Assembly (NCBI RefSeq): GCF_000424005.1
Contig: NZ_AUJB01000003.1
Location: forward strand, 1-64,000
DNA length: 64,000 bases
Origin: Pseudobutyrivibrio ruminis CF1b
GTDB taxonomy: Bacteria > Bacillota > Clostridia > Lachnospirales > Lachnospiraceae
Direction: 5' to 3'
The notes under the pieces are model-generated. The model was not told where the DNA came from. It did not search any database and worked only from the letters and a program-made list of their open reading frames with translations. Numbering within the stretch: position 1 is the first letter of the stretch; each line of letters begins with the position of its first letter. The position numbers and the translations under genes were made by a program. Shown piece after piece: positions 2,731-43,572 of the stretch.

Positions 2731-2810
2731 AATAACCTCCATTTTATAGATATAATGCACTATTATAAGCAGAATAATTATATCTATTAATCATAATATA
2801 AATGTATTAT

Positions 2811-5266: not shown

Positions 5267-5393
5267 CTATAATTTCTCCTGCTTATATTTTTCAAATTTC
5301 CATATTAAGTATATCATAGGCAGTTTAATTTTAAGAATCACATTTTTTAATAATAAAATATTTCTGCCACTAAAATTTTAGATTAAAATCAAA

Positions 5394-5425
5394 AAAGTTG
5401 CATGAGGAATTCCTCTTGCAACTTT
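5394..5425 (-). terminator. Intrinsic terminator after second endonuclease gene
   Basis: A nearly perfect 32-bp inverted repeat: arms AAAGTTGCA/TGCAACTTT around the palindrome GAGGAATTCCTC, with only one T-T mismatch pair. On the minus strand it runs into TTTTTTGATTTT. It separates the 5457-6407 gene from the dpnM operon. Confidence 0.8.
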
Positions 5426-5456
5426 CAGATATAATCTCTGCACTTTTTGGAAAATA

Positions 5457-29361: not shown

Positions 29362-29570
29362 GCTTCCACCTCCTATAAAACTCCTTAACACCCCTATATA
29401 TAAAAAAGTTTATCTGAAATGATGTTCCGCAACGTTATATTTAACTATATATATTGCTTAACTGCCGTTTATTGTAATGTCAACTTGTGTCTAAATTATG
29501 TATTGTCAGAAAACTAATTGTGAATTACAAGTAACCTATGTAGTTTATTCCTCAACATGTCCAAAAAAAA

Positions 29571-29638: not shown

Positions 29639-30562
29639 TTAATACTGAACAAATTCAATTGAATCAATGATTGCTGCAAGTGCATCTGATACTGGGATAT
29701 CGATTGCATCATCACCACTGTTGTGTACTGTAAACTCGAATGTCACTGATCCATCCATGATGTCTCTGCCAAGTGCTGACATGTGAAGTCCAGAACCTGT
29801 ATCCTCAGTGACTGGCATCATTGCATTGTAGCAAGTTACATCCTCTGTTCCTGGGAAAGTGCTCTCTGAATACTCTGTATCGCTTCCCCATGAATCGCCA
29901 ATTGCCTTAATAGCAGTCTTCGCATCATCAAGATTGTAAGTAGCTGTAATCATGCATGTTCCTGCACAGTCACCTGTGTATACGAATGTTGTAACAGGGC
30001 CTGACTGATTTACCTCGATTACATCTGGGTTATATCTAACTTTCCAGTTGTAAGGAGACTCATATACTAAATCTTCGCCATTCATAGCGTGTACGTAGTT
30101 CTCACCACTAAATCCGTTTGGATCAACACCATCCAACTTTTCGAATACTACATCAACGCCGTCCTCAAATGAACCTGTTACCTTGTTGTCATCGAAAGAC
30201 TTAACTGTAAATACCTGGTCTACTGGATCCATGCTTCCTACATGGAATGTTAACTCATTCTCACCAACCTCACATGTAAAGAAATCAGCGCTTCCTGTGA
30301 TGCCATCCTCGATGCTTCCTGAACCATCACCGAAGAATACATAGAAATATGTCTTCTCTGGGTTAACTGCATCTGCAGCATAGTTTGCGTAAACACCCTT
30401 TGTGAAATAAGTGATTGCTGACATAGCCACTGCTTCGTCTTCAATCTGTGCTGTCTCACTGTCAACTGATGCTGACTTTCCACAGCCAACCATGCCCATT
30501 ACCATTGTAAGAGCAAGTCCAAGTGCAAATGCCTTTTTCATTACTGAATTAATCTTTGTCAT
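29639..30562 (-). CDS. Secreted lipoprotein
   Basis: A 307-residue lipoprotein: basic start, hydrophobic core and lipobox MVGC (Cys about 27), then a short acidic spacer. The mature part has a lipocalin-like beta region (TYFYVFFGDGSGSIEDG...) and a second half with a FTVHNSGDDAIDIPVSDAL ending. No known family recognised. AAAGGAGA precedes the ATG. Its promoter (30626-30671) has the same TGTGA repeat layout as two promoters in the signalling block next door, so it is probably a regulated output of that system. Confidence 0.7.
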   Translation of the reverse strand: MTKINSVMKKAFALGLALTMVMGMVGCGKSASVDSETAQIEDEAVAMSAITYFTKGVYANYAADAVNPEKTYFYVFFGDGSGSIEDGITGSADFFTCEVGENELTFHVGSMDPVDQVFTVKSFDDNKVTGSFEDGVDVVFEKLDGVDPNGFSGENYVHAMNGEDLVYESPYNWKVRYNPDVIEVNQSGPVTTFVYTGDCAGTCMITATYNLDDAKTAIKAIGDSWGSDTEYSESTFPGTEDVTCYNAMMPVTEDTGSGLHMSALGRDIMDGSVTFEFTVHNSGDDAIDIPVSDALAAIIDSIEFVQY

Positions 30563-30625: not shown

Positions 30626-30671
30626 ATAATATCACCCTTAATATCACACAAGTGTCACACGAAAGATCACA
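30626..30671 (-). promoter_or_regulatory. TGTGA-repeat promoter of the lipoprotein gene
   Basis: On the minus strand TGTGA elements at 30655-30659 and 30644-30648 are spaced 11 bp; the -10 box TATTAT (30626-30631) starts 12 bp after the proximal element. Two further elements (TGTGA at 30667-30671, GGTGA at 30632-30636) extend the series with 12-bp steps. The same layout is at 40861-40894 and 43539-43572. Confidence 0.6.
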
Positions 30672-30683
30672 AATAAAAAAAGA

Positions 30684-30710
30684 GAGAATACGCCCCTTGG
30701 CCGCATTCTC
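30684..30710 (-). terminator. Terminator of the signalling operon
   Basis: Stem GAGAAT-N-CG / CG-N-ATTCTC with a 9-nt loop (one mismatch), followed on the minus strand by TCTTTTTTT. It closes the long operon running from 40802 to 30729. Confidence 0.8.
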
Positions 30711-30728
30711 CCTTTATTATCAAATTTG

Positions 30729-31412
30729 TTATTCTGCTTCCTCCATAAAGAAAACTTTTATTTTATTTAAAAACTCATCCTTAGGCATGGTCTTTAAAAA
30801 ATACCCCTGATGATTCAGATGCTCTACAGAACGAATACTTTCCTGGCTGTCATTTCCAGATAAGAAAATGACTGGTAATTCCTTCATCTCATCATCAGCC
30901 CGCAGTGTCTCTAAAACCTCAAGACCTGATGTGACTGGCATCTCATAGTCAAGTAAAACCAAATCCGCCTTGTTACTTCCAAGCCATTTGATTGCTCTGG
31001 CTCCTGATGTGACCATGGACACTTTATAATCATTCACCATCCATTCTCTCACCAGACTCATATAATTTGGATCATCATCCACTATAAGTATTTTTTTCTT
31101 ATCTCCAGCTGAATCCTGACTATCATCAGAATTAATGCTCGCTATATAAGCCTTGTAATCTATTGGCTTCTGTAAGGGAATGATTCTTCTGTTCCCCAGA
31201 TTATTTTCAACAAAAGCTTTTACCTCCCCAGGTAAATCTTTGCCATCTTCCTCACAAAACGTAATTACGGATATCTCATCCCAAAGTTCTTTTATTTTCC
31301 CCTCATCATAAGTAGAAAATACAGACTCAATACCTGAGTCCCCAAGCTTCTTAACAAGAATCTTTATGATAAAAGATTCCTTCTCCCCCAGAATTAAAAC
31401 CTTATGTCCCAA
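30729..31412 (-). CDS. Double-receiver-like response regulator without output domain
   Basis: A 227-residue protein. Residues 1-95 look like a degenerate receiver fold (HKVLILGEKESFIIKILVKKLG) lacking clear acidic pocket residues. Residues 105-225 are a standard receiver: KKILIVDDDPNYM, phospho-acceptor in DLVLLDYEMPVTSG, LSGND and FLKTMPKDE. There is no DNA-binding or enzymatic output, so it may be an intermediate in a phosphorelay. It appears to start at TTG with GGGGGCG upstream, 24 bp after the Hpt gene. Last gene of the operon. Confidence 0.8.
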   Translation of the reverse strand: MGHKVLILGEKESFIIKILVKKLGDSGIESVFSTYDEGKIKELWDEISVITFCEEDGKDLPGEVKAFVENNLGNRRIIPLQKPIDYKAYIASINSDDSQDSAGDKKKILIVDDDPNYMSLVREWMVNDYKVSMVTSGARAIKWLGSNKADLVLLDYEMPVTSGLEVLETLRADDEMKELPVIFLSGNDSQESIRSVEHLNHQGYFLKTMPKDEFLNKIKVFFMEEAE

Positions 31413-31436
31413 TATTAAATCGCCCCCATTACATTC

Positions 31437-32066
31437 CTATACTACCTGTATTCCAAGTAGCTCTTCTAGTCCGTCCCAATCACATTGACGAAGCATATTC
31501 TCCACCTTATCCACTATGGCCTGCTTATCCTGTGGCAGCTCATACAGACTCAGTTCTTCCAGAATCATTTCCACTCCGTCAGTATCCAGGGTAGGTACCA
31601 CTTCTTTCAGTGCATCAAAAGCATCTTCCAGTTCATCGTCCGATATAGGCTTTTTATTCTCCAGGCGCTTTTGCTTTTCCTGCATATAAGGAAGAAGTCT
31701 CTCCTTGTAACTTCTGTAGAGCTCCAGCAAATGATCCAGATTCTCATCTATTACAGAAAGCTCATTCTTCTTTCCAGCCATCTCCAGCGAATAGGCCAGC
31801 TCGCACATTTCAGTAGCACCAATCATTCTTGAGGCAGTTTTCAAAGCATGTACCTTTACAGTAAAATACGAGATATCTCCTTCCTTAAAAGACTTTTCCA
31901 ACTCAGCAATCTTTTCATCTATATCCAGATAGAAGGATTTAAGATATTTATCGAAATCTCTTACACTGCCGCAATAGCACAATCCATCTGAGATAGAAAT
32001 TCCATCTACCCCTGACAATCCTATAAGTTCCTGTGGAACACTATTGTCTTTGATTGCATCCCCCAT
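31437..32066 (-). CDS. Histidine phosphotransfer (Hpt) protein
   Basis: A 209-residue helical protein. The Hpt motif FTVKVHALKTASRMIG contains the phosphorylatable histidine. A C-terminal region (ISDDELEDAFDALKEVVPTLDTDG) resembles the extension that also follows the Hpt domain of the hybrid kinase at 34527-36521, so the two Hpt modules are paralogous. It can carry phosphate between that kinase and the receiver gene just downstream. AGGAG ribosome-binding site. Confidence 0.82.
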   Translation of the reverse strand: MGDAIKDNSVPQELIGLSGVDGISISDGLCYCGSVRDFDKYLKSFYLDIDEKIAELEKSFKEGDISYFTVKVHALKTASRMIGATEMCELAYSLEMAGKKNELSVIDENLDHLLELYRSYKERLLPYMQEKQKRLENKKPISDDELEDAFDALKEVVPTLDTDGVEMILEELSLYELPQDKQAIVDKVENMLRQCDWDGLEELLGIQVV

Positions 32067-32141
32067 GCCTTCTCCTCAAAACTAATTATATGTACAATAT
32101 ACCATACTTGCGAAAATAATCATCCATTTCTGGAAATATTC

Positions 32142-34511
32142 TTATATTTTTTTACTGATTCGTATATCCGTTAGAGCCACCTGGTCTCCACTTATAGAAA
32201 TGTAAATATCCTTTGTTCCATCCAGGATGGTTGTTCTATTCTCAATATCGATTCCAAGGTTTTCTGTTTTGATATCGATTGTATTTCCTTTTCTCACAAA
32301 TGATACGGAGCATTCAAGTCCAGATTTGTGCTTCTGCTTCCAAACATCCCAGCCTGGGAATGTCTCCTTCTTCTTCATTGTGAAATGGTTCTCTGCTATT
32401 CCGTCGTCACCAGACACTTCACCATTTATCTTTATCAAAGCATACTCACGATAATTATTTCCAAATAGCTTTTGATCATCGGAATAATATAAAACTATGT
32501 AAGGACAGTGCCATACCAGACTTGAAGATGGCAGACTCATTGCATGGAAATCCAGCTTCAGTCTGTCCTCAAGTGGGATTGCTTCTGTGGCAGCAGAGCG
32601 ATACTGATCTATCTGCACATTGGCCACATCTGATTCCATTCGATTGATAAATGTATCCTCTTCCACAATTTTAGGAATATCAGATTCCCTGATAATCTCG
32701 TTAGTAACATCCACAGTGATATCATACACTTTACAATTCTCACCTGTAATGGAAACGTATGCTGCCTTTGAACGGTCAGGCAATGCCAGGATTACATCGA
32801 ATTTTCCCTTGGCACTGTTGATTTCCAGCTTTACATGATCCTCATATTTTGCAGCAATAATCTCAAAGCTCTCAGTCGAGATTTCCCCTTCCTGTTTCTG
32901 GATTGGCTGCACTTTCATATTTCTGGCAGAGGTAGAAATTACTCTTCCATCGAACCAGACTTCTCCATACTCCAGATAATGATACGCCTCGATACCTTTT
33001 GTAGTATCATGGAAAAATCCATCAAATGAATCATATAAAACTATGGCAGGCTCTGAGAACATGCCAGCTATATCTTCGATTAGCGATGTCTTAAAACTAA
33101 TCTTTGTAATCTTCTCTACAATTGGGATTCCAACAGTAGCCGCATCCCTGTATGACTTACATGTTATTTCCTGCTCCACTTTAATTGGAGTTTTCTTAAT
33201 GACTTCATTGTTCTCCTGATCTAAAAGACGCACCATTATAGCTGCAATATCAGGATCAAATCTAATACCAGATTGCTTGATAAGCTCCTCACGAATGGTC
33301 TGCAAAGGAAATGGACCACGATAACTTCTGCGGGATGTCATGGCATCATAAGCATCAGCAACACTTATGATTCTTGCAATTTCAGGAATTTCTTTTCCCT
33401 TTAATCCATTTGGGTATCCACTTCCATCGTAGCGCTCATGGCTGTAAAGGGCAGCTTCCCTAAGATATGGAAATTCCACTATACTTGAAAGAATCTCACT
33501 GCTGAGTTCTGGTACACTTTCAATTACTTTTCTTTCCTCATCAGTCAGTTGCTCTTTCTGGTCAAGAAGAGAATCTGGAATACCAACCAGGCCTACATTA
33601 TGCATAAGGGCTGCATAATATATCTCATCGCATTCCTCCTCTGTTTTCCCCATTACCATGGCAATCTTTCTTGCCAGTCTGGCTACTCTTGAAGAATGAC
33701 CTATTGAATATTCATCACGCTTTTCTACAGCATACATAAATGCAGTGGCAGTCTGATCAAAAAGGCGCTTAACGCTCTTCTTTTCTTCTTCCAGCATTCG
33801 CATCTCATGGTTGTGAACATCCAATACAGTATGATTGATATCAATATACGTAAATACGTATAAAGAAATTGAAACCACAACCATAGCCATGTTTGTAATA
33901 GATAATCCGTATGTGTAAATCTGAATTATTCCCATCGAAACTGGTAACACAATATAGATAATCAGTGATATGTATACCCATTTACTAAAGAAATGACGAT
34001 ACTGAACCAACACCGTCAATAATATAAACGGAGTAATAACTGGGATCACATAACTTATAAGAAATCCAGGTCCTCGGTGATAATTGTTTGATTCATCAAA
34101 ATAATAAAACAATCCTGTAAACTGAGACAGTACAACCACACTCATATCTATGAAGCAGGCAATACTTACAATGGTCAGACGTTTTGGAATTTTCTTAAGT
34201 CTTCCCTCACGCATGATAATATTTTCAAGATACCAACCGAATCCTAAAACAGCACATGGTGTCAATAAGTAAACGAAGAAGTTGCTGACTCTCACCATCA
34301 GATATGCAGTAGGACCAGGCTGACCTGCATAAATATAGGCCATTCGATCAAAGATCATCAATAGTGTGGCAACGAACAGCATAAAAATCAGTATGTGCTT
34401 TCTGCGCCTCTCCAAAAACTTTGTAATGAAAAGAAGCAGGGTAAAGCATAGACTGATTATGCTAAGTACCAGCATTATATCTAATTGATTAGCTCTGATA
34501 ATATTATACAT
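32142..34511 (-). CDS. 7TM protein with degenerate HD-GYP and two C-terminal beta domains
   Basis: A 789-residue membrane protein. Residues 1-230 contain about seven membrane helices of the histidine-kinase-type 7TM region. Residues 250-430 are an HD-GYP domain that keeps H272, the SHER segment, DGSGYP and VADAYD but has lost several metal ligands: HD is H304-N305, the KxH histidine position is V333 in ESVPELS, and the HHE pair is S357-H358. It probably senses and does not hydrolyse c-di-GMP. Residues 453-605 and 636-789 are two related beta-rich domains (SYRDAATVGIPI and QYRSAATEAIPL starts; VSITGENCKVYDI and ISISGDQVALTDI ends). Ribosome-binding site GGGGAC. It follows the hybrid kinase by 15 bp. 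Confidence 0.82.
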   Translation of the reverse strand: MYNIIRANQLDIMLVLSIISLCFTLLLFITKFLERRRKHILIFMLFVATLLMIFDRMAYIYAGQPGPTAYLMVRVSNFFVYLLTPCAVLGFGWYLENIIMREGRLKKIPKRLTIVSIACFIDMSVVVLSQFTGLFYYFDESNNYHRGPGFLISYVIPVITPFILLTVLVQYRHFFSKWVYISLIIYIVLPVSMGIIQIYTYGLSITNMAMVVVSISLYVFTYIDINHTVLDVHNHEMRMLEEEKKSVKRLFDQTATAFMYAVEKRDEYSIGHSSRVARLARKIAMVMGKTEEECDEIYYAALMHNVGLVGIPDSLLDQKEQLTDEERKVIESVPELSSEILSSIVEFPYLREAALYSHERYDGSGYPNGLKGKEIPEIARIISVADAYDAMTSRRSYRGPFPLQTIREELIKQSGIRFDPDIAAIMVRLLDQENNEVIKKTPIKVEQEITCKSYRDAATVGIPIVEKITKISFKTSLIEDIAGMFSEPAIVLYDSFDGFFHDTTKGIEAYHYLEYGEVWFDGRVISTSARNMKVQPIQKQEGEISTESFEIIAAKYEDHVKLEINSAKGKFDVILALPDRSKAAYVSITGENCKVYDITVDVTNEIIRESDIPKIVEEDTFINRMESDVANVQIDQYRSAATEAIPLEDRLKLDFHAMSLPSSSLVWHCPYIVLYYSDDQKLFGNNYREYALIKINGEVSGDDGIAENHFTMKKKETFPGWDVWKQKHKSGLECSVSFVRKGNTIDIKTENLGIDIENRTTILDGTKDIYISISGDQVALTDIRISKKI

Positions 34512-34526
34512 GCGCTGTCCCCCACA

Positions 34527-36521
34527 TCAGGCGTTTTTAATCCATTCTTCCATAGCATCCCAGTCAAAAATCTTAAGCATCTTTGACAAATCGTAAATCT
34601 TAATAGCATCCTCATCAGGAAGCTTGTATTCCATAAGTCCATCCACAACCATAGATACTGCATCGTAATCCATAAGTGGAATCATTTCTTTCAAAGTAGC
34701 GTATGCATCTGCCAGCTCTTCCTTAGAGATAGGCTCCTTGTCCTCATCATCAGTCACTACTACCTTGAGAGATTTGAGCTTTTCTTTATAAGCTCCGTAC
34801 TCTGCCAAAAATCTGTCGTTATTGGCATCTATAAATTCCATGTCTTTTTTCTTTCCAGCTTCCTCCAGCTGTAAAGCAAGTTCTGCCAGGTCAAGTGCAC
34901 CGATAATTCGACATGAGCTTTTCAGTGCGTGAACCTTGATAGTATAAAGTCGGATATTTCTTTCTTCATAGGCATCCCTGATTACCTTTGTATTTGAATC
35001 GATGGTATCAAGGAACAGCTCAAGTGCAATAATAAAGCTTCCAATACCACCGGAATTCTTAATACCTTCATCAACATTGATACCCTCTGTCTCATTAATC
35101 CAAAGCATATTTTCAGGAAGCTCTTTCAGCTCTTCCACCACTTCATCCCTGTCGATTACTTCCACCATTTCCTCTGGCAGATGTTTCAAAATGGTCTTTT
35201 CTAAAACTTCTGTATCAACAGGCTTTGACAGGTAACCATCGAATCCCTTTGAAAGATAGAAGTCTGCACCCGTGGTAGAGTTTGCAGTAAGAGCGTACAC
35301 TGGAATCTTTGGTTCTATCTCTCGAATCTTTTCCAGAGTCTCTATTCCATCCATTCCTGGCATCATGTGATCCAGCAATACGAAATCAAAATGGTTATCC
35401 TTAATCTTATCTATAGCTTCCTCGCCACTTAAAGCTGTAGTGACAAACACTCTTGTAGCTTTAAGAAGTCCTTTGATTACACTAAGGTTTACTGGGTTGT
35501 CATCTACCACCAGAATATCTGCATCAGGAGCAATAAAGTGAGGCACGTAAGGACCCTTAGAAATAGCTTCATCATGCTCTAAGAAAATACCGATTGGATT
35601 GGCGTCGATAATCTTCTGTCCCAGTGTAAGGATAAACTCTGAGCCCTCACCATAAGTACTTTCGCACCACAGCTGACCACCCATCAATTCTGCAAATCTG
35701 TTTGAAATATCAAGTCCCAGACCTGTTCCCTGGATCTCGCTGTTTACCTCTTCATCCAGTCGCTCGTAGGCAGTGAAGAGACGTCCCATATCCTCTTCCT
35801 TTATACCAATACCTGTATCCTTTACTGCAAAGCGTAGTGTACAGATGTCATTTTCTCTGGCATCCATGGAAACATTGAGAATCAGTCCACCTCTCTGGGT
35901 GTACTTTACGGCATTGGTAAGAAGATTTAAAACAATCTGCTTAATCTTTCCCATGTCTCCGTAAAGACGTTTTGGCATAATCTCGTCTATAACCACATCA
36001 AAGGTAAGTTCCTTTTCTATGGTTCTCACACGAATCATAGAGACGATTGAGCGAAGCATATCCTGAGTGTCATACTCCTGCTCCACCAGGTGCATCTTTC
36101 CTGATTCAATTTTGGAAATATCCAGCAAGTCATTAATCAGACCAAGAAGTGATTCCGATGCATTTCTGATATCAAAAGCATAGTTCATCATGGACATGAA
36201 ATATTCCTTTGGCACTCCTGATGCATCCTCACGCATTACCATCTCATTCATACCCATGATGGTATTGATAGGAGTTCTGATTTCATGAGACATGTTTGCA
36301 AGGAATCTGGACTTGGATGTGTAGGCTCTCTCTGCATCATCCTTAGCCTTTCGGATTTCCTCGTACTGTCTTTTGATGACTGTTGAACGCATGACCAGCC
36401 ACACAATGGCACCACCCAATATAGCAATCAATATCAGGAACAATATATTTATTATTGATAAATTTTCGGTTAAAACAAAACCTACGGAATTTCCCATTTC
36501 TATAAAAAAGCTCCTTCTCAT
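34527..36521 (-). CDS. Hybrid histidine kinase (HisKA-HATPase-REC-Hpt)
   Basis: About 664 residues. A single membrane helix (about 22-45) leads to HisKA (SRFLANMSHEIRTPINTIMG, His79), HATPase (GTGLGLDISNRFAELMGG), a receiver (DILVVDDNPVNLSVI, phospho-acceptor in LLDHMMPGMDG) and a C-terminal Hpt (YTIKVHALKSSCRIIGA). There is almost no extracellular sensor, so the signal probably comes from the membrane partners in the operon. It supports an internal His-Asp-His relay ending on Hpt. Start uncertain: the first ATG is 12 bp after the HD-GYP stop; a second ATG eight codons on has GGAGC at 13 nt. Confidence 0.9.
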   Translation of the reverse strand: MRRSFFIEMGNSVGFVLTENLSIINILFLILIAILGGAIVWLVMRSTVIKRQYEEIRKAKDDAERAYTSKSRFLANMSHEIRTPINTIMGMNEMVMREDASGVPKEYFMSMMNYAFDIRNASESLLGLINDLLDISKIESGKMHLVEQEYDTQDMLRSIVSMIRVRTIEKELTFDVVIDEIMPKRLYGDMGKIKQIVLNLLTNAVKYTQRGGLILNVSMDARENDICTLRFAVKDTGIGIKEEDMGRLFTAYERLDEEVNSEIQGTGLGLDISNRFAELMGGQLWCESTYGEGSEFILTLGQKIIDANPIGIFLEHDEAISKGPYVPHFIAPDADILVVDDNPVNLSVIKGLLKATRVFVTTALSGEEAIDKIKDNHFDFVLLDHMMPGMDGIETLEKIREIEPKIPVYALTANSTTGADFYLSKGFDGYLSKPVDTEVLEKTILKHLPEEMVEVIDRDEVVEELKELPENMLWINETEGINVDEGIKNSGGIGSFIIALELFLDTIDSNTKVIRDAYEERNIRLYTIKVHALKSSCRIIGALDLAELALQLEEAGKKKDMEFIDANNDRFLAEYGAYKEKLKSLKVVVTDDEDKEPISKEELADAYATLKEMIPLMDYDAVSMVVDGLMEYKLPDEDAIKIYDLSKMLKIFDWDAMEEWIKNA

Positions 36522-36533
36522 TATTGAATGCTA

Positions 36534-38705
36534 TCAACCGTGCTCTTTGTTGTACTTTCTAAATATTACTTTTATTTCTGGCAGAGAATCTAAAAAGACC
36601 TCCACACATTTTGGATCGAACTCTGTGCCAGCTCTTTCCTTTATATAATTAATTGCTTCATCAAATGAATATTTTTTACCGCTGCTGCCCTTACCTGAAG
36701 TAAGTACATCAAACTGATCAGCCACCGCCATGATTCTGGCTGAAAGTGGGATTACCTCTCCATGGAGACCTTCCGGATATCCATTTCCATCCCATCTCTC
36801 GTGGTGATATGCCGCCATGTTTCTGGCTTCCTTCAGGTAGTTCTCTCCGGAAACAGTAGTGATGGCATTTTCCATTATCTTCTTACCTGCAGTGGTATGA
36901 GTCCTCTTTATTTCTTCCTCTTCACGGGTAAGCTTTCCGACTTTATTTAAAATACTGTCTGGAATATTAATCTTTCCAATATCGTGAAGTGGTGCCGAAC
37001 GAACCACATCCGAGATAAATTTATCGTTAACCTTACCTGGATAATAGCCCTTCTTCTTCAGTCCCTCTGCAATAATCTTTACATAGGAAGCTGTCTTTTG
37101 AATGTGGGCACCACTGCTCTCGTCACGATTTTCCACCAAACCCGCCATGGTCACAATCAGACCATCCTGCATCTTTGTGGTGTTTTCTGTAAAGTGACGA
37201 ATACTTCGAATCTGCTCTGCCTGGTTTAAAGCCATGTTGCAGATAGACTGATAAAGCATCTCCACTTCATCTCCAGTGTGAACATCTATCTTTCGTAAAT
37301 CCCTAACAGCCTTGTCGATTTCCACCTGATTGTCACCGGCCTTGATAAATCTCTCCACGCCCAGTCCCATTCGGCTGATTGGATATACCAGATATCTTCC
37401 TGTGGTCCACATTCCGTTTGCCAGAATGGTAATGATAATTCCAATCATAACAAGTAGAACTCGCCACATGAATTCCATCAGATACTCAGCCACATACTCT
37501 ACCGATGCATCAGCTCCGGCATAGCAGACACAGTTTCCCTTTGAATCATATACAGGATAAAATGAAGTCACTATCCAGCTGTAGGAATTATCCGATTCTG
37601 TAGGTGGAATGATTTTTCCCTCTTTGAAATCATCTACATAACATAAAAATTCTTCGTCTAGACGAACTCTGTGTCCAGGCGCATAACCCTCATCATCACC
37701 TTCATATCCAAAATTTTCATAATCACTTCTGGCATCCAAATCAAATATAAAGATCATATCCTCATCTTCAATTTTTACAATGTAAAGATATGCTACACCT
37801 ACAGCGTTATCTCTAATCTTATACAGCATATCTTCCGTTTCCTTGTAGCCCGGCGCATTTTCTCCGTACTGCAAAAATCTTTCTATCTTATTAGGGTCAA
37901 CTATAGAAGCCGCAAACTTTGCCGCAGATGTGGCAATCTCCTTTTTCTCATCAAGATCCTTGTGGAAATACATTCGCATTTCAATTACAGACATCATGAT
38001 AATAACAAGTACCGAAACACCAAAAAGAAGTGCTGTCAGTCTGGTGCGCATGGAATGCTTTGCATCCTTGCTCCATGCTCTCATGGCCACCATCTCTTCA
38101 TTGGAAAGGGGAGTCTGCTTCCATCCGGCATATATTAACTTTTGTTTATATTTCTCTGGAATAAAGTGAATGATATTTAAGGCAATACCAATAGATAATG
38201 CCTTATCCATAATATTGACGACTGTATTTACCACTGCGAAAGTGGCCGCATAGGAAATGCCAGTAGCCATTGTCAGTCTTTCTATAGAATCCTGAATCAG
38301 GACATTTTGAGGTGACATAAACAGGTGCCACTGAATATAAGCACCCACTCCACCACTTAAAATACCTGCTGCCAGACCAAAGTAGACCTTATATCTAAAA
38401 CCACGATAAGCGAAACGCTCCATATATAAGGCAGACAGCATGGCAATTAAGATGTTAACAATAGCGAAATACATAGATACGCCATTGTAGATTGAACATA
38501 GAGCATTAGTTATAAGTCCTGTGAAGATACCTGGCAGAATTCCGCCTACACAGGATACTACAACAGTGCCTATGGTATCCAAAAACAGAGGAACGCCTGT
38601 CAAATTGGTTAAAAATGCGGGCAGCAAATTAATGGCTACCCCAAATAAAACCAGCAGCCATCTGAGCCACAAACTCTGATCCCCATACTCCAATCGTTTT
38701 TTCAA
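36534..38705 (-). CDS. Membrane HD-GYP phosphodiesterase
   Basis: A 723-residue protein. Residues 15-185 are membrane helices resembling an ECF S-component-like sensory region (LFLDTIGTVVVSCVGGILPG). An extracellular Cache-like domain (about 235-420), a membrane helix and a HAMP-like linker follow. The C-terminal HD-GYP domain looks complete: PLHDIGKINIPD, IKRTHTTAG, AYHHERWDGNGYPEG and VADQFDVLTSG. It should hydrolyse c-di-GMP. The start chosen is a TTG with GGGAGG 7 nt upstream; an earlier in-frame TTG overlaps that site. It pairs with the degenerate HD-GYP two genes on. Confidence 0.85.
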   Translation of the reverse strand: MKKRLEYGDQSLWLRWLLVLFGVAINLLPAFLTNLTGVPLFLDTIGTVVVSCVGGILPGIFTGLITNALCSIYNGVSMYFAIVNILIAMLSALYMERFAYRGFRYKVYFGLAAGILSGGVGAYIQWHLFMSPQNVLIQDSIERLTMATGISYAATFAVVNTVVNIMDKALSIGIALNIIHFIPEKYKQKLIYAGWKQTPLSNEEMVAMRAWSKDAKHSMRTRLTALLFGVSVLVIIMMSVIEMRMYFHKDLDEKKEIATSAAKFAASIVDPNKIERFLQYGENAPGYKETEDMLYKIRDNAVGVAYLYIVKIEDEDMIFIFDLDARSDYENFGYEGDDEGYAPGHRVRLDEEFLCYVDDFKEGKIIPPTESDNSYSWIVTSFYPVYDSKGNCVCYAGADASVEYVAEYLMEFMWRVLLVMIGIIITILANGMWTTGRYLVYPISRMGLGVERFIKAGDNQVEIDKAVRDLRKIDVHTGDEVEMLYQSICNMALNQAEQIRSIRHFTENTTKMQDGLIVTMAGLVENRDESSGAHIQKTASYVKIIAEGLKKKGYYPGKVNDKFISDVVRSAPLHDIGKINIPDSILNKVGKLTREEEEIKRTHTTAGKKIMENAITTVSGENYLKEARNMAAYHHERWDGNGYPEGLHGEVIPLSARIMAVADQFDVLTSGKGSSGKKYSFDEAINYIKERAGTEFDPKCVEVFLDSLPEIKVIFRKYNKEHG

Positions 38706-38766
38706 GCCTAATCCTCCCAATTAATACTTTCAGACTAATATTTTTCCTCTGTTTGTTCAAGGATTT

Positions 38767-40347
38767 CTAAAAGTATTTAAAACTAAGCATTGTGATATCA
38801 TCAAACCGAGGTGAATCCTCAACAAATTCATCGATATCTTTCTCTACGTTCTCCAGAAGTTCTTTCACATCCCCATCTGAATTATAGTTGAGAGCCTTCA
38901 ACATTCTTTCTGGTCCGTAAAGTTCATTTTTTGCATTAGTAGCCTCAGGCACACCATCCGTATATACGAATAAACAGTCGCCATGATTCAGATGGAATTC
39001 CTGCTCCCTAAACTTCATTCCTTCCATTGCAGCTACTGCAGGTGAATGCTTGTAAATATCAAGCTCAAATTTACCCCCTGCTCTTTTTATAACTGGATGT
39101 TCATGACCTGCATTTGCAGACACAACCTTACCAGTAGAAATCTCAATAATTCCCAGCCATACAGTAACGAAGAGGTCCGCATCATTTCCCTCGCAAAGCT
39201 GGTTGTTTACATCGTAAAGAATATCTGCTGGAGAGAATTTCTTATCCATCAGAGCTCTGTACTTAATAAGTGTTCTGGCATTTACCATGAAAAGGGCAGC
39301 TGGCACTCCCTTCCCTGATACATCAGCCATTACAAGACCCAAATGGTCTTCATCAATTAAAAAGAAATCATAAAAATCCCCACCAACCTCTTTAGCCGGT
39401 GTCATTGTCGCGTAGATGTCGAATTCCTTTCTCTCAGGAAATGGAGGAAAGTTTCTTGGAAGCATATCTGCCTGAATCTTTGCCGCTACGTTTAATTCAG
39501 CTGTGATACGCTCTTTTTCTGCAGTGATGGTCTGGATATTATCGATGTAATCCACTATATCCTGCTCCATGCTTTGAACAGATTTGGCCAGCTCCTCCAG
39601 CTCATCACCAGTTTTTATATCATTGAGTGAATCGTCGGTAGTAGTATTTTCCGCGAACCACTTAATGTTCCTTCTAAGTATCATCAACGGATGGATGATA
39701 TACGAATTCATATAATGCCAGTTCAACAGGCAGAATCCTCCCAGAAGAACCAGGGCAATAATCACCATATTTATAATAAATCTTCTAAGTGTGGAATGGA
39801 TTACTTCCATATTCGTATCTACGAATAAAAGTGCTACCACCTCACCTTTTCTATCCTTTACAGGAAGACAGCTGGATGTTAGAAATCCATACTGTGAATG
39901 TCTTACCAGATAACTTTTTGGTCTCACGCCCTCAGTGTAAGCTTTCCAGATTTCGTCAAATGGCGCAGCAATTGGATCTCGAAAACCCATATTGCTTCCG
40001 GAATCATAAATATATTTTATTGTTTTGTCTTCATATGGGACGCCAATGTATATATATGCGGCACCTGAAAATTCCTGAATATAATTTAGGTACATTGACA
40101 TGTCCTCATAGTACTTGTCCTCGTACCAGGTTCTGGAATATTCAGCAATTTTCTCGTGGTCAATCTGGTTTAAAATAATGTTGGCCACCACGTAGCCGCG
40201 CTCGTTATAGATTCTCTGAACCGCCCGGTCAAATATCAAAGAACCGCTAATACACATAGCAATATTGACCAGCAACGTAAATACGATAATACCCGCAAGC
40301 GCCTTCGCATGAATACCAAATTTTTTCTTCTTTAATAATCTTGCCAT
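38767..40347 (-). CDS. SpoIIE/RsbU-type PP2C phosphatase with sensor
   Basis: A 526-residue membrane protein: a helix at about 14-36, an extracellular Cache-like sensor (FSGAAYIYIGVPYED), a second helix near 190-210, HAMP and coiled coil, then a PP2C domain (about 290-526): AKEVGGDFYDFF and LGLVMADVSGKGVPAALFM hold metal-binding aspartates; DSPRFDDITML ends it. In partner switching such enzymes dephosphorylate the STAS antagonist, here probably the protein at 42363. GAAGGGGAT precedes the ATG. It follows the GHKL kinase gene by 17 bp. Confidence 0.9.
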   Translation of the reverse strand: MARLLKKKKFGIHAKALAGIIVFTLLVNIAMCISGSLIFDRAVQRIYNERGYVVANIILNQIDHEKIAEYSRTWYEDKYYEDMSMYLNYIQEFSGAAYIYIGVPYEDKTIKYIYDSGSNMGFRDPIAAPFDEIWKAYTEGVRPKSYLVRHSQYGFLTSSCLPVKDRKGEVVALLFVDTNMEVIHSTLRRFIINMVIIALVLLGGFCLLNWHYMNSYIIHPLMILRRNIKWFAENTTTDDSLNDIKTGDELEELAKSVQSMEQDIVDYIDNIQTITAEKERITAELNVAAKIQADMLPRNFPPFPERKEFDIYATMTPAKEVGGDFYDFFLIDEDHLGLVMADVSGKGVPAALFMVNARTLIKYRALMDKKFSPADILYDVNNQLCEGNDADLFVTVWLGIIEISTGKVVSANAGHEHPVIKRAGGKFELDIYKHSPAVAAMEGMKFREQEFHLNHGDCLFVYTDGVPEATNAKNELYGPERMLKALNYNSDGDVKELLENVEKDIDEFVEDSPRFDDITMLSFKYF

Positions 40348-40364
40348 TATCCCCTTCTTCCCTT

Positions 40365-40802
40365 TTAAATATGCTTCATCATTGTGAGTATATTTTTTCC
40401 ATCTTTATAGTCATAAGAAATCTCGTCCATACTTTTCTTCACCATAAAGATTCCAAGACCTCCGATTTCCCGCTCTTCCGCCGATAGAGTAGTATCCGGA
40501 TCTTCTTTTTCCAGAGGATTGTAAGGAAAGCCCTTATCTTTAAATGTCAGATAGACCTGTCCCTTGTCTGCCTCAAGGTCCAGCTCCATCGGCCCCGTCC
40601 CTGTATCGGGAATAGGTTTACCACCCTCATCCAGTTTGCCGTAAGCATAGTGAGCAATATTGACATATATCTCCTCGACAGCAAGGGTAATCTGCATGAG
40701 CCTGGCCATATCACACTGCTGTGATTCCAAAGCCTCCTCTACAAAACCCATTACTTTTTCCAGGTTTTCAATTGTTGCCTCACACTCAAACTTCTTTTTC
40801 AT
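40365..40802 (-). CDS. RsbW/SpoIIAB-like GHKL ATP-binding anti-sigma-type kinase
   Basis: A 145-residue HATPase_c_2 protein. The N box LAVEEIYVNIAHYAYG and the G box GGLGIFMVKK are intact, as are FKDKGFPYNP residues of the ATP lid. In the known systems this kinase binds a sigma factor or other target and phosphorylates the STAS antagonist. No sigma gene is in the window, so the target is unknown. First gene of the long signalling operon, with a TGTGA-repeat promoter at 40861-40894. Confidence 0.88.
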   Translation of the reverse strand: MKKKFECEATIENLEKVMGFVEEALESQQCDMARLMQITLAVEEIYVNIAHYAYGKLDEGGKPIPDTGTGPMELDLEADKGQVYLTFKDKGFPYNPLEKEDPDTTLSAEEREIGGLGIFMVKKSMDEISYDYKDGKNILTMMKHI

Positions 40803-40860
40803 AAGTATTCTACCTGTAAAACCCCTTCAATAAAAACCACAACCCCCTTTGATAAATCAA

Positions 40861-40894
40861 ATTATAATACTAATAATATCACACAACTGTCACA
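40861..40894 (-). promoter_or_regulatory. TGTGA-repeat promoter of the signalling operon
   Basis: On the minus strand two TGTGA elements (40890-40894 and 40879-40883) are 11 bp apart, and the -10 box TATAAT (40861-40866) starts 12 bp after the proximal one. The repeats take the place of a normal -35 box. The start codon is about 60 bp further on. Confidence 0.65.
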
Positions 40895-40931
40895 CATTGT
40901 TTATTTATCATCAGAATATGTATAAAACAAA

Positions 40932-40956
40932 AGGGACGGCATACTAATCCGTCCCT
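40932..40956 (-). terminator. Terminator of the receiver-winged-helix operon
   Basis: Perfect stem AGGGACGG/CCGTCCCT with a 9-nt loop, followed on the minus strand by TTTGTTTT. Confidence 0.85.
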
Positions 40957-40976
40957 AAAAGTCTGTCCTGTTAAGT

Positions 40977-41798
40977 TTATACTGCGTCCTCGTCCTCATA
41001 CAGCGCGTAGCTTATCTCATCAAGCTCTGCATGGAAGAACTCTGGCCAGCTGTACTGGTTCATGTAATCTCCCAGGTACTGATACTTGGAATCCTTCTTT
41101 TTATCCAGCCAGTCGAAAAGATCACACTCGATTTTATCCTTGGCAATTGCCATACTACCTCGCTGCTTGATAATGATGCCATCTAGCTTTAGCTTTTTAA
41201 ATGTATTCTGCAAATCCTGTCTCAGATTACACAGATATGAAAGCTTCTTCTCTGGGTCGCCGTCATCCTCCCACAATGAAGCAATCAGCTCACCATTAGT
41301 GGTCTGTGCTCCACGGTTGTTAATCAGGATAGCCACGATTTCTTTTGTTCTGTTATATTTGAATGTCACAGGCTCTCCATCCACGAAAAGCTCGAAGTTG
41401 CCAAAAGTCTGAGCGAACACTCTCTTATACTTCTTTCGAAGTTCTGGATATCTGAGAGAATCTAGCTCCTTTGCCACCCTCTTGTCTGCCTCCGGTTTGT
41501 ATATGTAGCCGCTGGCATGAAGTTGCATTGCCTCGTAGGCAAACTCCTTATGCTCGCTTACGTATATTATGTTTGTGTATGGATTAAGCTCCACCAAATA
41601 TTTTCCTAACTCGATTCCTGACAGTTCGGGCATATTTACATCAAGAAATGCCACATCGATTTCTTCCTCTCTGGCTTTAGCCAATGCTGAAAGTGAACTG
41701 TCGAAAGTAAATAGATTAGCGTCACTGTTTGCCTTTTTCACAAGCTTTGTAAGCTTATCAAGAGAAGTGCGCTCATCATCTACTGCTAATATATTCAT
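40977..41798 (-). CDS. Response regulator with winged-helix output
   Basis: A 273-residue protein. The N-terminal receiver has ILAVDDERTS, phospho-acceptor in DVAFLDVNMPELSG, and the YIYKPE lysine. The C-terminal half is a winged helix like OmpR/SARP proteins (FGNFELFVDGEPVTFKYNRTKEIVAILI, then GELIASLWED). Such domains bind direct repeats spaced 10-11 bp, so it is the best local candidate to bind the TGTGA repeats at 30626, 40861 and 43539. GGGAGGG ribosome-binding site. Co-transcribed with the hypothetical gene 13 bp upstream. Confidence 0.85.
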   Translation of the reverse strand: MNILAVDDERTSLDKLTKLVKKANSDANLFTFDSSLSALAKAREEEIDVAFLDVNMPELSGIELGKYLVELNPYTNIIYVSEHKEFAYEAMQLHASGYIYKPEADKRVAKELDSLRYPELRKKYKRVFAQTFGNFELFVDGEPVTFKYNRTKEIVAILINNRGAQTTNGELIASLWEDDGDPEKKLSYLCNLRQDLQNTFKKLKLDGIIIKQRGSMAIAKDKIECDLFDWLDKKKDSKYQYLGDYMNQYSWPEFFHAELDEISYALYEDEDAV

Positions 41799-41811
41799 TC
41801 TGCACCCTCCC

Positions 41812-42303
41812 CTATATTATTGATACTGACTTAATCTTCTGGTTCTTTCGCTGCTCTGCTGTCATGTGAAGAGGATCAGCCTCTCCTACCACCAAAGTAT
41901 CGCCGTCGTTCATTGCCGCATCATGAAGTGGTCCCATATTCATGTCAGCAATAACAAGTGCTGCAAACCTGTCGAAATTGTCATCGTCTATTACAGGGAA
42001 ATGATGCTTCATTCTGTACCAATGATCACTGTCGTATCCTACGCTTCCGATGTAGAGTCGGTCTGCTGTGTTTACCACATCATCCACATCTGCGTACGGG
42101 GCATTTGCCATGGCAGTGTCCTCGCAAAACAAAGTTGCGTATATACGAAGTATCTTATCTCTTACGGTCTCCTCGTGACCATCCTTTGCCACCTTGCCTG
42201 TACCGGATTCCATATGACTATAGAAATAATCCTGTGCCTCGTCGCTGTCGTCAAAATTCAGTATTGCATCGTAAAATTTCTTATCAATAAAACTCTTTCC
42301 CAT
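41812..42303 (-). CDS. Hypothetical protein in regulator operon
   Basis: A 163-residue soluble acidic protein with no recognised motif; it contains FYSHMESGTGKVAKDGHEETVRDKILRIY as separate helices and YDSDHWYRMKHHFPVIDDDNFD, rich in Asp, His and Tyr. No signal peptide. It precedes the receiver-winged-helix gene by 13 bp and may be its partner or sensor. Function unknown. Confidence 0.65.
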   Translation of the reverse strand: MGKSFIDKKFYDAILNFDDSDEAQDYFYSHMESGTGKVAKDGHEETVRDKILRIYATLFCEDTAMANAPYADVDDVVNTADRLYIGSVGYDSDHWYRMKHHFPVIDDDNFDRFAALVIADMNMGPLHDAAMNDGDTLVVGEADPLHMTAEQRKNQKIKSVSII

Positions 42304-42331
42304 GGTACACTTCGCCCTTCCTCAAAAAATA

Positions 42332-42352
42332 AGGGGTAGAATAACCACCCCT
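42332..42352 (-). terminator. Terminator of the STAS gene
   Basis: Stem AGGGGT-N-G / C-N-ACCCCT, followed on the minus strand by TATTTTTT. It is 10 bp past the STAS stop codon. Confidence 0.7.
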
Positions 42353-42362
42353 CAGATAATTC

Positions 42363-42662
42363 TTATTGAATTGTAAATATATCTGAAAAACCAGTAACTT
42401 CGAAAATCTCCTGAACCTCTTCAGTAGGATTGTTCACTACCATTCGGCCCTGCTTGTTCATGATTTTCTGTGCTGATAAAAGAACTCTAAGACCTGCACT
42501 TGAAATGTATTCCAAATTCTTTAAATCAAAAGTAAGCTTTGATACTCCTTCAATAACAGCATTGATTTTTTCTTCCAGCTGAGGAGAGGTGGTTGTGTCC
42601 AGTCTTCCTTCAAGCTCCACAATCAAATCTTCACCTTTTTTCTCATCCTTGATATTTAACAT
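42363..42662 (-). CDS. STAS-domain anti-sigma factor antagonist
   Basis: A 99-residue SpoIIAA/RsbV-like protein: VELEGRLDTTTSPQLEEKI and LEYISSAGLRVLLSAQKIM, where the serine pair of the SSAG motif is the usual phosphorylation site. It is the expected substrate of the GHKL kinase at 40365 and the phosphatase at 38767. GGAGGAG lies upstream. It is transcribed alone, between its own promoter and terminator. Confidence 0.92.
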   Translation of the reverse strand: MLNIKDEKKGEDLIVELEGRLDTTTSPQLEEKINAVIEGVSKLTFDLKNLEYISSAGLRVLLSAQKIMNKQGRMVVNNPTEEVQEIFEVTGFSDIFTIQ

Positions 42663-42725
42663 AAATTATAACTCCTCCTCGTTCTCCTTTAATAAAGCCC
42701 CAATTTTAGGCATTTATTTGAAATA

Positions 42726-42754
42726 ATTATACTCTATCACTTTTTTATTCACAA
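42726..42754 (-). promoter_or_regulatory. Promoter of the STAS gene
   Basis: -35 TTGTGA (42749-42754) and -10 TATAAT (42726-42731) are 17 bp apart. A TGTGA is present but the spacing differs from the three TGTGA-repeat promoters nearby, so this looks like a standard promoter. Confidence 0.6.
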
Positions 42755-42820
42755 CTAAATGATGTTTGTTCACATATTTTTCATAAATCCTGTGTTTTCA
42801 AGGGTTTTCAGACCTTTGCA

Positions 42821-43492
42821 TTAGGTGGCCATGATGAATGCCATCTCAATATGATCCTTCTCCACACCTACTACAACATCCTTAGCAATGCTTCCTACTA
42901 TTGACTTCTCAAGCTCCTCCCAGCAGGCTGTTACCTCTGGCTGGCCATGGCCCTTCTTAAGCGACTCCTTATAGTCATCCATTGTCCACATAAATCCTGT
43001 GAATGCACTTGGGTTTGAAGCAACTGCTGTATCAAGATATGAACCAGATATTCCCATGCCATATCCACTGTACTTCTGCTGAAGCTTCATCACACCATCG
43101 TAGCTTAAAAGACCTGTCTCTACAAAGTCTCTTACCTTTCCCATAAATCCAACTGCAAGAGCATTTGATCCTGTAGATGAAACTGACATCAAATCTGTTT
43201 TCTTATCGATGTCCATGTTTGTCTTTCCCACAAGTCTCAGCCAGCTTTCACCATCATATTTCTCAGCCCATACCATAGCTGTGAAATCACCAGTGATTGC
43301 CTTTACCATTCCGATAGACTCTTCGAAGAGAAGCTTCATATGTAATGAATCCTTCTTATTAAGATGAAGCTCTTCGATACTCTTGTCTACCTGCTCATAA
43401 ACTTCGTTGTATCTTTTCTCATCACTGTTAACGAAGATCTGCTCTGTTGAAAAACTTGGTACCTGTTTCTTATTCTTGATTATAGTCTCCAT
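42821..43492 (-). CDS. Hypothetical protein, possibly a degenerate GHKL relative
   Basis: A 223-residue soluble protein. LHMKLLFEESIGMVKAI sits where a GHKL N box would be, but the asparagine of EExxxN is replaced (EESIGM against EEIYVN in the kinase at 40365). No G box is seen. The C-terminal half (YGMGISGSYLDTAVASNP...) is unrecognised. The ATG chosen has GGGAGG at 8 nt. Its promoter (43539-43572) has the shared TGTGA repeats, so it belongs to the same regulon. The GHKL relation is speculative. Confidence 0.6.
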   Translation of the reverse strand: METIIKNKKQVPSFSTEQIFVNSDEKRYNEVYEQVDKSIEELHLNKKDSLHMKLLFEESIGMVKAITGDFTAMVWAEKYDGESWLRLVGKTNMDIDKKTDLMSVSSTGSNALAVGFMGKVRDFVETGLLSYDGVMKLQQKYSGYGMGISGSYLDTAVASNPSAFTGFMWTMDDYKESLKKGHGQPEVTACWEELEKSIVGSIAKDVVVGVEKDHIEMAFIMAT

Positions 43493-43538
43493 GTCTCTAA
43501 CCTCCCCAAACAAAACTAATGTTGTTTTCTATGGTCAT

Positions 43539-43572
43539 AATTTAACATGGCTTATATCACAAAAGTATCACA
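43539..43572 (-). promoter_or_regulatory. TGTGA-repeat promoter
   Basis: On the minus strand TGTGA elements at 43568-43572 and 43557-43561 are 11 bp apart; the -10 box TAAATT (43539-43544) starts 12 bp after the proximal element, exactly as at 30626 and 40861. Confidence 0.55.

What the first reader, a model, noticed from the sequence alone, without database searches (positions are those of the whole stretch)
30626..43572. Three signalling-block promoters share TGTGA-N6-TGTGA-N12-(-10)
On the minus strand, before the genes starting at 30562, 40802 and 43492, two TGTGA elements lie exactly 11 bp apart and a -10-like hexamer (TATTAT, TATAAT, TAAATT) starts exactly 12 bp after the second. All three lie 60-80 bp before the start codon. 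The repeats replace the -35 box, as expected for activator-dependent promoters. An 11-bp period suits winged-helix response regulators, and one (40977-41798) is encoded in the block. The lipoprotein at 29639 would then be an output gene. The 30626 site has four phased elements.
Basis: partly seen in the sequence, partly recalled or inferred. Interest (0 to 1): 0.75.

Follow-up and report, generated by a model that had tools for sequence, protein, structure and literature searches.

The report
Self-regulating promoter switch in rumen bacteria
A gut bacterium controls a small set of mostly exported proteins with one precisely built DNA switch, probably worked by a regulator encoded beside it; many relatives of this regulator have lost parts of their usual phosphate sensor while keeping a tightly linked partner protein of unknown kind.

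Summary
The three sites are among exactly six zero-mismatch copies in the 3.27 Mb genome. Across the genus, 119 strict sites lie in 18 of 29 genomes, with no hits for the reversed pattern. Unsearched positions are also conserved: an extended -10 (TGn) and a CA start 7 nt after the -10.

The 40977 response regulator is very probably the activator. In the genus, 17 of 17 genomes with its ortholog carry sites; without it 11 of 12 carry none. A written prediction in another genus held for 2 of 2 motif genomes and 14 of 15 motif-free ones. Some distant homologs keep the 11-bp geometry with other repeat letters beside the regulator gene (12 of 55 in the discovery set; only 2 of 41 held out, no better than a 12-bp period).

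Regulators of this clade sit downstream of an orphan gene (41812-42303; 72 of 80 loci, the other 8 contig-edge or distant), and their receivers are decaying: the phosphorylation set is complete in 25 of 94, against 104 of 114 homologs without that gene. STAS, RsbW-like and kinase genes are rare neighbours.

The parts
30626..30659 (-). Promoter-operator 1: TGTGACA-N4-TGTGATA direct repeat (TGTGA at 30655-30659 and 30644-30648), extended -10 TGATATTAT (hexamer 30626-30631), before lipoprotein 30562
40861..40894 (-). Promoter-operator 2 (TGTGA at 40890-40894 and 40879-40883; -10 TATAAT 40861-40866), between the regulator gene and the RsbW-like kinase gene
   Evidence: the same place just after the regulator gene is used in several other genera
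43539..43572 (-). Promoter-operator 3 (TGTGA at 43568-43572 and 43557-43561; -10 TAAATT 43539-43544), before 43492, 42662, 42303 and the regulator gene: proposed autoregulation
40977..41798 (-). Response regulator: receiver plus OmpR/PhoB-like winged helix plus conserved C-terminal tail; proposed activator
   Evidence: co-occurrence; co-variation
41812..42303 (-). Orphan 163-aa protein directly upstream of the regulator gene; proposed partner / signal input
   Evidence: no significant Pfam, NCBIfam or PDB relative
42363..42662 (-). STAS anti-sigma-factor-antagonist-like protein, behind promoter 3
42821..43492 (-). Unclassified protein, first gene behind promoter 3
40365..40802 (-). RsbW-like ATPase (HATPase_c_2), first gene behind promoter 2
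38767..40347 (-). SpoIIE-type phosphatase
36534..38720 (-). Membrane HD-GYP-type (HD_5) protein
34527..36521 (-). Hybrid histidine kinase with receiver and Hpt
32142..34511 (-). Membrane HD-GYP-type (HD_5) protein; a look-alike lies near the G187 regulator and sites (by eye, L095:16228-18597)
31437..32066 (-). Hpt protein
30729..31412 (-). Receiver-domain protein
29639..30562 (-). Lipoprotein, output gene of promoter 1; look-alikes lie behind the motif in other genus genomes and at C9:119635-120243 (by eye)

Best explanation
The sites are operators of one activator-dependent promoter class. Two head-to-tail copies of TGTGAYA, 11 bp (about one helical turn) apart, lie at about -40 to -23 in place of a -35 box, followed by a fixed gap and an extended -10 (TGnTAWWWT), with transcription probably starting at CA 7 nt after the -10. 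The response regulator at 40977-41798 binds them as a tandem dimer, as OmpR/PhoB-family regulators do (recalled), and recruits housekeeping RNA polymerase. It activates its own operon (from 43492), the adjoining RsbW-like/phosphatase operon (from 40802) and output genes, many of them for exported proteins. Shown computationally: the motif, its promoter anatomy, its co-occurrence, linkage and co-variation with the regulator. Inferred: binding, activation, tandem dimer. More speculative: in this clade the activity signal comes largely from the directly upstream orphan protein 41812 rather than from phosphorylation, because the receivers are decaying while gene 41812 is kept.
For: Promoter: six exact sites in the own genome, each 46-84 nt before a start codon. 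119 strict sites in 18 of 29 genus genomes, 0 reversed-control hits. In 122 sites the unsearched columns are conserved: T and G of the extended -10 87% and 75%, C and A at +39/+40 56% and 64%, G at -1 66%.

Regulator: in the genus 17 of 17 genomes with the ortholog have sites, 11 of 12 without have none. Prediction written before the search: G701 and G718 hold 73% and 76% orthologs; 14 of 15 motif-free genomes of that genus hold none of 56% or more. PWM>=16 sites beside the regulator in 24 of 80 named loci, 1 reversed-control hit in 552 kb (L328's site was also in the PWM training set). A letters-free scan of 59 loci peaks at period 11, offset 28 with 17 hits, 11 of them on the regulator's strand within 170 nt of its gene; other periods reach at most 7 (4 of the 17 are from close orthologs). 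Operator difference correlates most with the recognition helix (Mantel r 0.48, p 0.0005; other winged-helix 0.40, wing 0.38, tail 0.37, receiver 0.24 with p 0.01; 25 regulators). Winged helix.

Partner: gene 41812 with 17 of 17 genus, 4 of 4 family and 3 of 3 Butyrivibrio-type orthologs, 72 of 80 named loci (the 8 others: 2 contig-edge, 6 under 50% identity), 0 of 40 divergent loci; one clade of 91 tips, support 1.0, midpoint root. D53 + acidic pair + K101 all present in 25 of 94 with gene 41812 against 104 of 114 without (the 94 rows hold 5 duplicate pairs).
Against: No binding or expression data. G026 has 3 sites and no ortholog (29% best hit; 81% complete). G425 (61%) and G721 (64%) have the ortholog, but no strict site in the genome and none by PWM in the stretches held. 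G062 and G133 have one site each, before GG-leader-like genes, but only distant homologs (30%; 29% and a 41% part). G362 has a site that looks to be inside a coding region, and no homolog at E<=1e-35. Two of the 14 'confirmed motif-free' genomes, G501 and G612, carry a 27-bit variant site beside 41-42% homologs, so the strict motif draws the line too sharply. In the held-out divergent set the geometry is not enriched: 2 of 41 at period 11 and also 2 at period 12; the 12 of 55 come from the set in which I first noticed it. 56 of 80 named loci have no site in the few kb held. Co-occurrence is partly shared ancestry. The 25 operators were picked by hand (one shifted by a base), and 7 of them belong to near-identical regulators. 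The window's own receiver keeps D7, D8, D53 and K101, so phosphorylation may still matter there.
Confidence: 0.85

Rival explanations
1. The sites belong to WalR or another general OmpR-type regulator that recognises TGT-type direct repeats with 11-bp period.
For: The WalR consensus is TGTWAH-N5-TGTWAH (passage in PMC9210968), the same period and nearly the same letters. That paper's abstract says WalRK is found in all Firmicutes (search listing).
Against: Position 4 is G in all sites found (but the search required it). 11 of 12 genus genomes without the 40977 ortholog have no site. Sites cluster beside this regulator gene. I did not test for a WalR gene in any of these genomes.
Confidence: 0.06
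2. The motif is the promoter of an alternative sigma factor released by the STAS / RsbW-like / SpoIIE partner switch of the block.
For: The three partner-switch proteins are encoded here and two of the promoters drive them.
Against: The -10 is an ordinary extended -10. Neither repeat lies at a normal -35 distance (direct count). In some divergent relatives the repeat letters change while the period stays, as expected for an operator. STAS is near only 7 and RsbW near 3 of 80 regulator loci. No sigma-factor match among the block proteins scanned; the genome was not searched for one.
Confidence: 0.05
3. The regulator is right, but it is controlled by ordinary phosphorylation, for example from the hybrid kinase/Hpt proteins; the conserved gene 41812 has another role.
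For: The window receiver keeps D7, D8, D53 and K101, and a hybrid kinase and two Hpt domains are encoded downstream.
Against: The full set is kept in only 25 of 94 relatives that have gene 41812. Gene 41812 is directly upstream wherever a close ortholog has upstream sequence in the 80 loci, with a 4-nt overlap in 51. Relatives of the hybrid kinase lie within the held flanks in only 3 and of the Hpt protein in 0 of 80 loci.
Confidence: 0.3
4. The repeats are a chance or mobile-repeat artefact.
For: AT-rich DNA yields many TGTGA pairs: 36 in this genome; the loosened pattern is near background.
Against: 0 reversed-control hits for the strict pattern in the genus, family and order scans; unsearched promoter columns conserved; many different downstream genes.
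Confidence: 0.01

Closest known systems
OmpR/PhoB-family response regulators acting on direct-repeat boxes that replace the -35 (Pho box; recalled, no call)
   Same: Receiver plus winged helix; two direct repeats 11 bp apart just upstream of the -10; housekeeping-type -10
   Different: TGTGAYA letters; extended -10; in this clade the receiver is often degenerate and the gene sits directly behind an orphan protein gene
WalR (YycF) box TGTWAH-N5-TGTWAH (PMC9210968, passages read)
   Same: Same period and TGT-N-A-type repeats
   Different: G instead of W at position 4; rigid position relative to an extended -10; absent from 11 of 12 genus genomes that lack the 40977 ortholog
Pseudo-receiver / aspartate-less receiver regulators: RitR, CmrT, BldM/WhiI (PMC4395418 abstract; PMC12632262 abstract and two sections; PMC12548384 passages)
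   Same: Receivers that lost phosphorylation residues yet keep a DNA-binding output
   Different: Here the decay runs through a single clade and coincides with a directly linked orphan protein; the operator is proposed and a regulon can be listed
LytTR regulatory systems (PMC6193735, passages read)
   Same: Autoregulation through direct repeats whose letters diverge while length and spacing are kept
   Different: LytTR repeats are separated by 11-13 bp and lie upstream of a -35; here a winged-helix regulator and repeats that replace the -35

Membership tests
OmpR/PhoB-type response regulator | Receiver domain followed by a winged-helix DNA-binding domain | tested here: met
   Pfam Response_reg 2.5e-20; profile of 26 sequences aligns to DrrB, PhoP, PrrA, KdpE over about residues 2-197; predicted winged helix (mean pLDDT 77.9) and Foldseek top hits. 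Pfam's C-terminal regulator domain itself did not match.
OmpR/PhoB-type response regulator | Phosphorylation residues: acidic pair, D53, K101 | tested here: inconclusive
   Met in the window protein; the full set is present in only 25 of 94 relatives with gene 41812.
OmpR/PhoB-type response regulator | Binds tandem direct repeats about 11 bp apart | not testable with these tools
   Repeat geometry and co-variation support it; no binding assay.
WalR regulon | TGTWAH-N5-TGTWAH box | tested here: not met
   Window sites read TGTGAY-N5-TGTGAT; W at position 4 is G in both halves of all three; consensus from PMC9210968.
WalR regulon | walR gene present wherever the sites occur | not tested
   No WalR query was run.
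Partner-switch sigma-factor regulon | Cognate alternative sigma factor gene | not tested
   No sigma factor among the block proteins scanned; the genome was not searched for one.
LytTR regulatory system | LytTR DNA-binding domain | tested here: not met
   No LytTR match for 40977-41798 in Pfam; predicted winged helix. NCBIfam LytR and BtsR matches cover only the receiver, residues 1-124.
Pseudo-receiver regulators | Lacks key phosphotransfer residues | tested here: not met
   Not met by the window protein itself (D7, D8, D53, K101 kept); 35 of 94 clade rows lack D53.

The most novel reading that the evidence does not exclude
A clade of response regulators is changing its input: phosphorylation of the receiver is being abandoned, and control passes to a directly coupled orphan protein (41812, no sequence or fold match found) that binds the receiver or the C-terminal tail. 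The TGTGAYA direct-repeat promoter is its stable, readable output across Pseudobutyrivibrio, Butyrivibrio and other rumen Clostridia, and the wider regulator family carries diverged operators that could be read as a recognition code for its winged helix.
Probability: 0.45. Interest if true: 0.8.

Novelty: new variant of a known kind. Interest (0 to 1): 0.62.

Why it matters
It proposes an operator, a promoter architecture and a regulon for an uncharacterised regulator clade of rumen bacteria. It also offers a concrete case for an open question: how pseudo-receiver regulators are switched on and off, which a 2025 review calls a mystery (PMC12632262 abstract). Intact and decayed receivers coexist in one clade with the same partner gene, so the question can be tested by swapping receivers on a single reporter. 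The diverged repeats beside some distant homologs (TGTCACG, TGTTGCG, TGTGTCC, TGCAACG and others) could let their targets be read from sequence.

Tried and rejected
Chance: rejected for the strict motif by controls. CRP-type sites: rejected because the half-sites are direct, not inverted (recalled knowledge of CRP). One-mismatch hits in the own genome (8 of 14) were dropped as noise by PWM. G059's one-mismatch hit outside the family and G362's hit were treated as chance.

The idea that the whole signalling block is the conserved unit was rejected within the flanks held. The exported-protein enrichment rests on a crude pattern for N-termini (targets 49 of 72, background 207 of 513, Fisher p 1.2e-5; the background comes from neighbouring genes), so treat it as suggestive. 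GG-leader-like labels come from a pattern (8 of 123 sites; L033 is a ninth by eye), not from a family model. Held-out divergent regulators gave no period-11 enrichment (2 of 41 at period 11, 2 at period 12). In one search the operators were chosen by hand and L387 dropped out because no protein was extracted (26 named, 25 used). Fold of protein 41812: no PDB match, so its action stays inferred. Paper searches for an earlier description (open-licence PMC papers only) gave 1, 0, 5, 0 and 0 papers (five different ones, as PMC6193735 is in two lists); none of the titles or listed abstract openings describes this operator or regulator, and of these papers I read passages of PMC6193735 only.
Full report
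Observation. The three minus-strand sites exist as described. The window lies in a 3.27 Mb, 16-contig genome, genus probably Pseudobutyrivibrio. That is inferred: the G002 regulator contig (34,003 bases) and the G007 one (10,912 bases) match by length and regulator sequence named records of Pseudobutyrivibrio sp. SIG315 and P. ruminis AD2017. Exactly six zero-mismatch copies of TGTGA-N6-TGTGA-N12-TANNNT occur in this genome. The three not in the window are C9:120301 (before a look-alike of the 29639 lipoprotein), C9:122943 (before a 45-aa gene and a PadR / 322-aa / DUF4097 gene run) and C10:52590 (before a 72-aa membrane protein and a lipoprotein, behind a Na/Pi cotransporter gene). With one mismatch allowed there are 14 places against 7 for the reversed pattern, and the extra eight score as noise.

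Promoter anatomy. The strict pattern TGTGAYANTNNTGTGAYA-N10-TANNNT gives 119 sites in 18 of 29 genus genomes and none for the reversed pattern. In 122 unique sites, columns that the search did not specify are conserved: T 87% and G 75% at +25/+26 (extended -10), C 56% and A 64% at +39/+40 (probable start, 7 nt after the -10), and G 66% at -1. Where the script found an ATG with a purine-rich leader, 97 of 112 starts lie 18-84 nt after the -10. In 80 regulator loci fetched by protein, not by motif, 26 of 33 TGTGA pairs with 11-bp spacing have the extended -10 at exactly +28 and at no other offset tested.

Regulon. Behind the 123 unique sites (genus plus four other genera) lie the RsbW-like kinase, the 42821 family, the lipoprotein family, 43-45-aa and about 70-aa small proteins, a PadR gene run, large secreted proteins and short GG-leader-like proteins, including one each in G133 and G062 (grouping by eye and pattern). 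By a crude N-terminal pattern, 49 of 72 targets of 100 aa or more look exported, against 207 of 513 neighbouring genes.

Which regulator. In the genus, orthologs of the 40977 regulator at E<1e-100 occur in 17 of 29 genomes. All 17 have sites. Of the 12 others, 11 have none, and G026 (81% complete) has three. In 397 family genomes the stricter motif occurs in 8 and orthologs of 56% identity or more in 6: own, G013, G244, G431, G425, G172. G244 has four sites, one upstream of the regulator gene. G172 has one strict site plus two near the regulator. G431 has a 39-bit variant near it. G425 has none found. G187 (36% identity) has two strict sites on the regulator contig and a weaker one just after the regulator gene. 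G062 and G133 have one site each with only distant homologs. In 392 order genomes the motif occurs in 10, all in the same family. Two newly found ones, G701 and G718, belong to another genus; their regulators equal those of named Butyrivibrio records. I wrote the prediction that they would hold the ortholog and their 15 motif-free congeners would not. Result: 73% and 76% orthologs in the two, and no ortholog of 56% or more in 14 of 15; G721 (64%) is the miss. Two of the 14, G501 and G612, have 41-42% homologs followed by a 27-bit variant site.

Diverged operators. A scan that ignores letters (7-base repeat, at least 6 matches, extended -10) in 59 family regulator loci peaks at period 11, offset 28 with 17 hits. 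The period-11 row forms a ridge from neighbouring registers, and other periods reach at most 7. 11 of the 17 are on the regulator's strand within 170 nt of its gene; 4 of the 17 come from close orthologs with TGTGA repeats. With a 9-base repeat and only the DNA next to the gene, 12 of 55 divergent regulators (46% identity or less) of this discovery set have such a promoter at period 11, against at most 1 at other periods; shuffling both sets gives a mean of 0.4 and a maximum of 2. The 41 held-out regulators do not confirm it: 2 at period 11 and 2 at period 12. For 25 regulators, operator difference correlates most with the recognition helix (r 0.48), then the rest of the winged helix (0.40), wing (0.38), tail (0.37) and receiver (0.24); the partial correlation of the helix given the receiver is 0.43. 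TGTG-type operators go with Asn at the position of window residue 191 in 12 of 13 regulators, other operators in 1 of 12; without the seven close orthologs, 5 of 6 and 1 of 12.

The partner gene. In 80 named regulator loci (the best 80 of 592; record titles name Butyrivibrio, Pseudobutyrivibrio, Blautia, Ruminococcaceae, Oscillospiraceae and others), gene 41812 is found in 72. The other eight are two contig-edge loci and the six with under 50% identity. In 51 loci the two genes overlap by 4 nt; in the window they are 13 nt apart. It accompanies all 17 genus, all four family and all three Butyrivibrio-genus orthologs held, and none of 40 divergent regulators. Regulators with it form one clade of 91 tips with support 1.0 under midpoint rooting. 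In that clade the acidic pair, D53 and K101 are all present in 25 of 94 rows (five duplicate pairs included), against 104 of 114 in homologs without the gene. Meanwhile the winged helix is more uniform (mean majority residue 0.87 against 0.49; receiver 0.59 against 0.53), though the clade is also a narrower group. The window's own receiver keeps all four residues. Protein 41812 has no significant Pfam, NCBIfam or PDB-sequence match (best stray E 0.002). Its model is good (pLDDT 85.7) and matches no PDB fold. Other block genes are rare within the flanks: phosphatase 7, STAS 7, 42821 6, HD-GYP 3 and 4, RsbW-like 3, hybrid kinase 3, Hpt 0 of 80.

Mechanism. Best reading: a tandem-binding OmpR/PhoB-like activator with autoregulation. 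Steps supported by computation: promoter anatomy, conservation, co-occurrence, co-variation, gene linkage. Steps inferred: binding, activation, dimer mode, and control by 41812. The partner-switch, kinase and HD-GYP genes of the window are targets or local neighbours rather than the conserved core.

Literature. WalR box and C. difficile WalR: passages of PMC9210968. Pseudo-receivers: abstract and two sections of PMC12632262, abstract of PMC4395418, passages of PMC12548384. LytTR systems: passages of PMC6193735. The Pho box geometry is recalled. No description of this operator was seen in the listings of searches.

Noticed in passing
41812-42303: Orphan protein family with many invariant residues (e.g. 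TADRL, HWYRM, RFAAL), no significant sequence or fold match; the constant partner of this regulator clade.
   Followed up: yes
L015:17721-17858 (own genome C9:122721-122858): A 45-aa protein (MKIGEIIKCATLEEVFRKAFELNR...) with 43-45-aa look-alikes behind the motif in many genus genomes; one of the most regular targets, function unknown.
   Followed up: partly
L186, L195, L143, L164, L191, L033, L096, L097: Short GG-leader-like proteins (bacteriocin-type leaders by pattern or eye) behind the motif, including in two other genera.
   Followed up: partly
L017:9481-10525 (own genome C10:51481-52525): A 72-aa membrane protein and a lipoprotein behind the motif, just after a Na/Pi cotransporter-PhoU gene; look-alikes recur in other genus genomes.
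   Followed up: partly
L099, L223, L224, L059: Receivers of close orthologs with lost acidic or phospho-acceptor residues (for example D53 to E or S).
   Followed up: yes
463-6407: By eye, a cluster of restriction-modification-like genes: two adenine-methylase-like and two endonuclease-like ORFs plus a large DGQHR-type ORF.
   Followed up: no
24322-29391 and 52661-56455: By eye, a large surface protein with repeats and a multi-domain xylanase-like protein; no strict motif copy in front of them.
   Followed up: no
L352 (G364), upstream of the regulator gene: An 11-bp repeat of GGGGGCA / TGCCCCC type readable as a promoter on both strands beside a divergent homolog.
   Followed up: no
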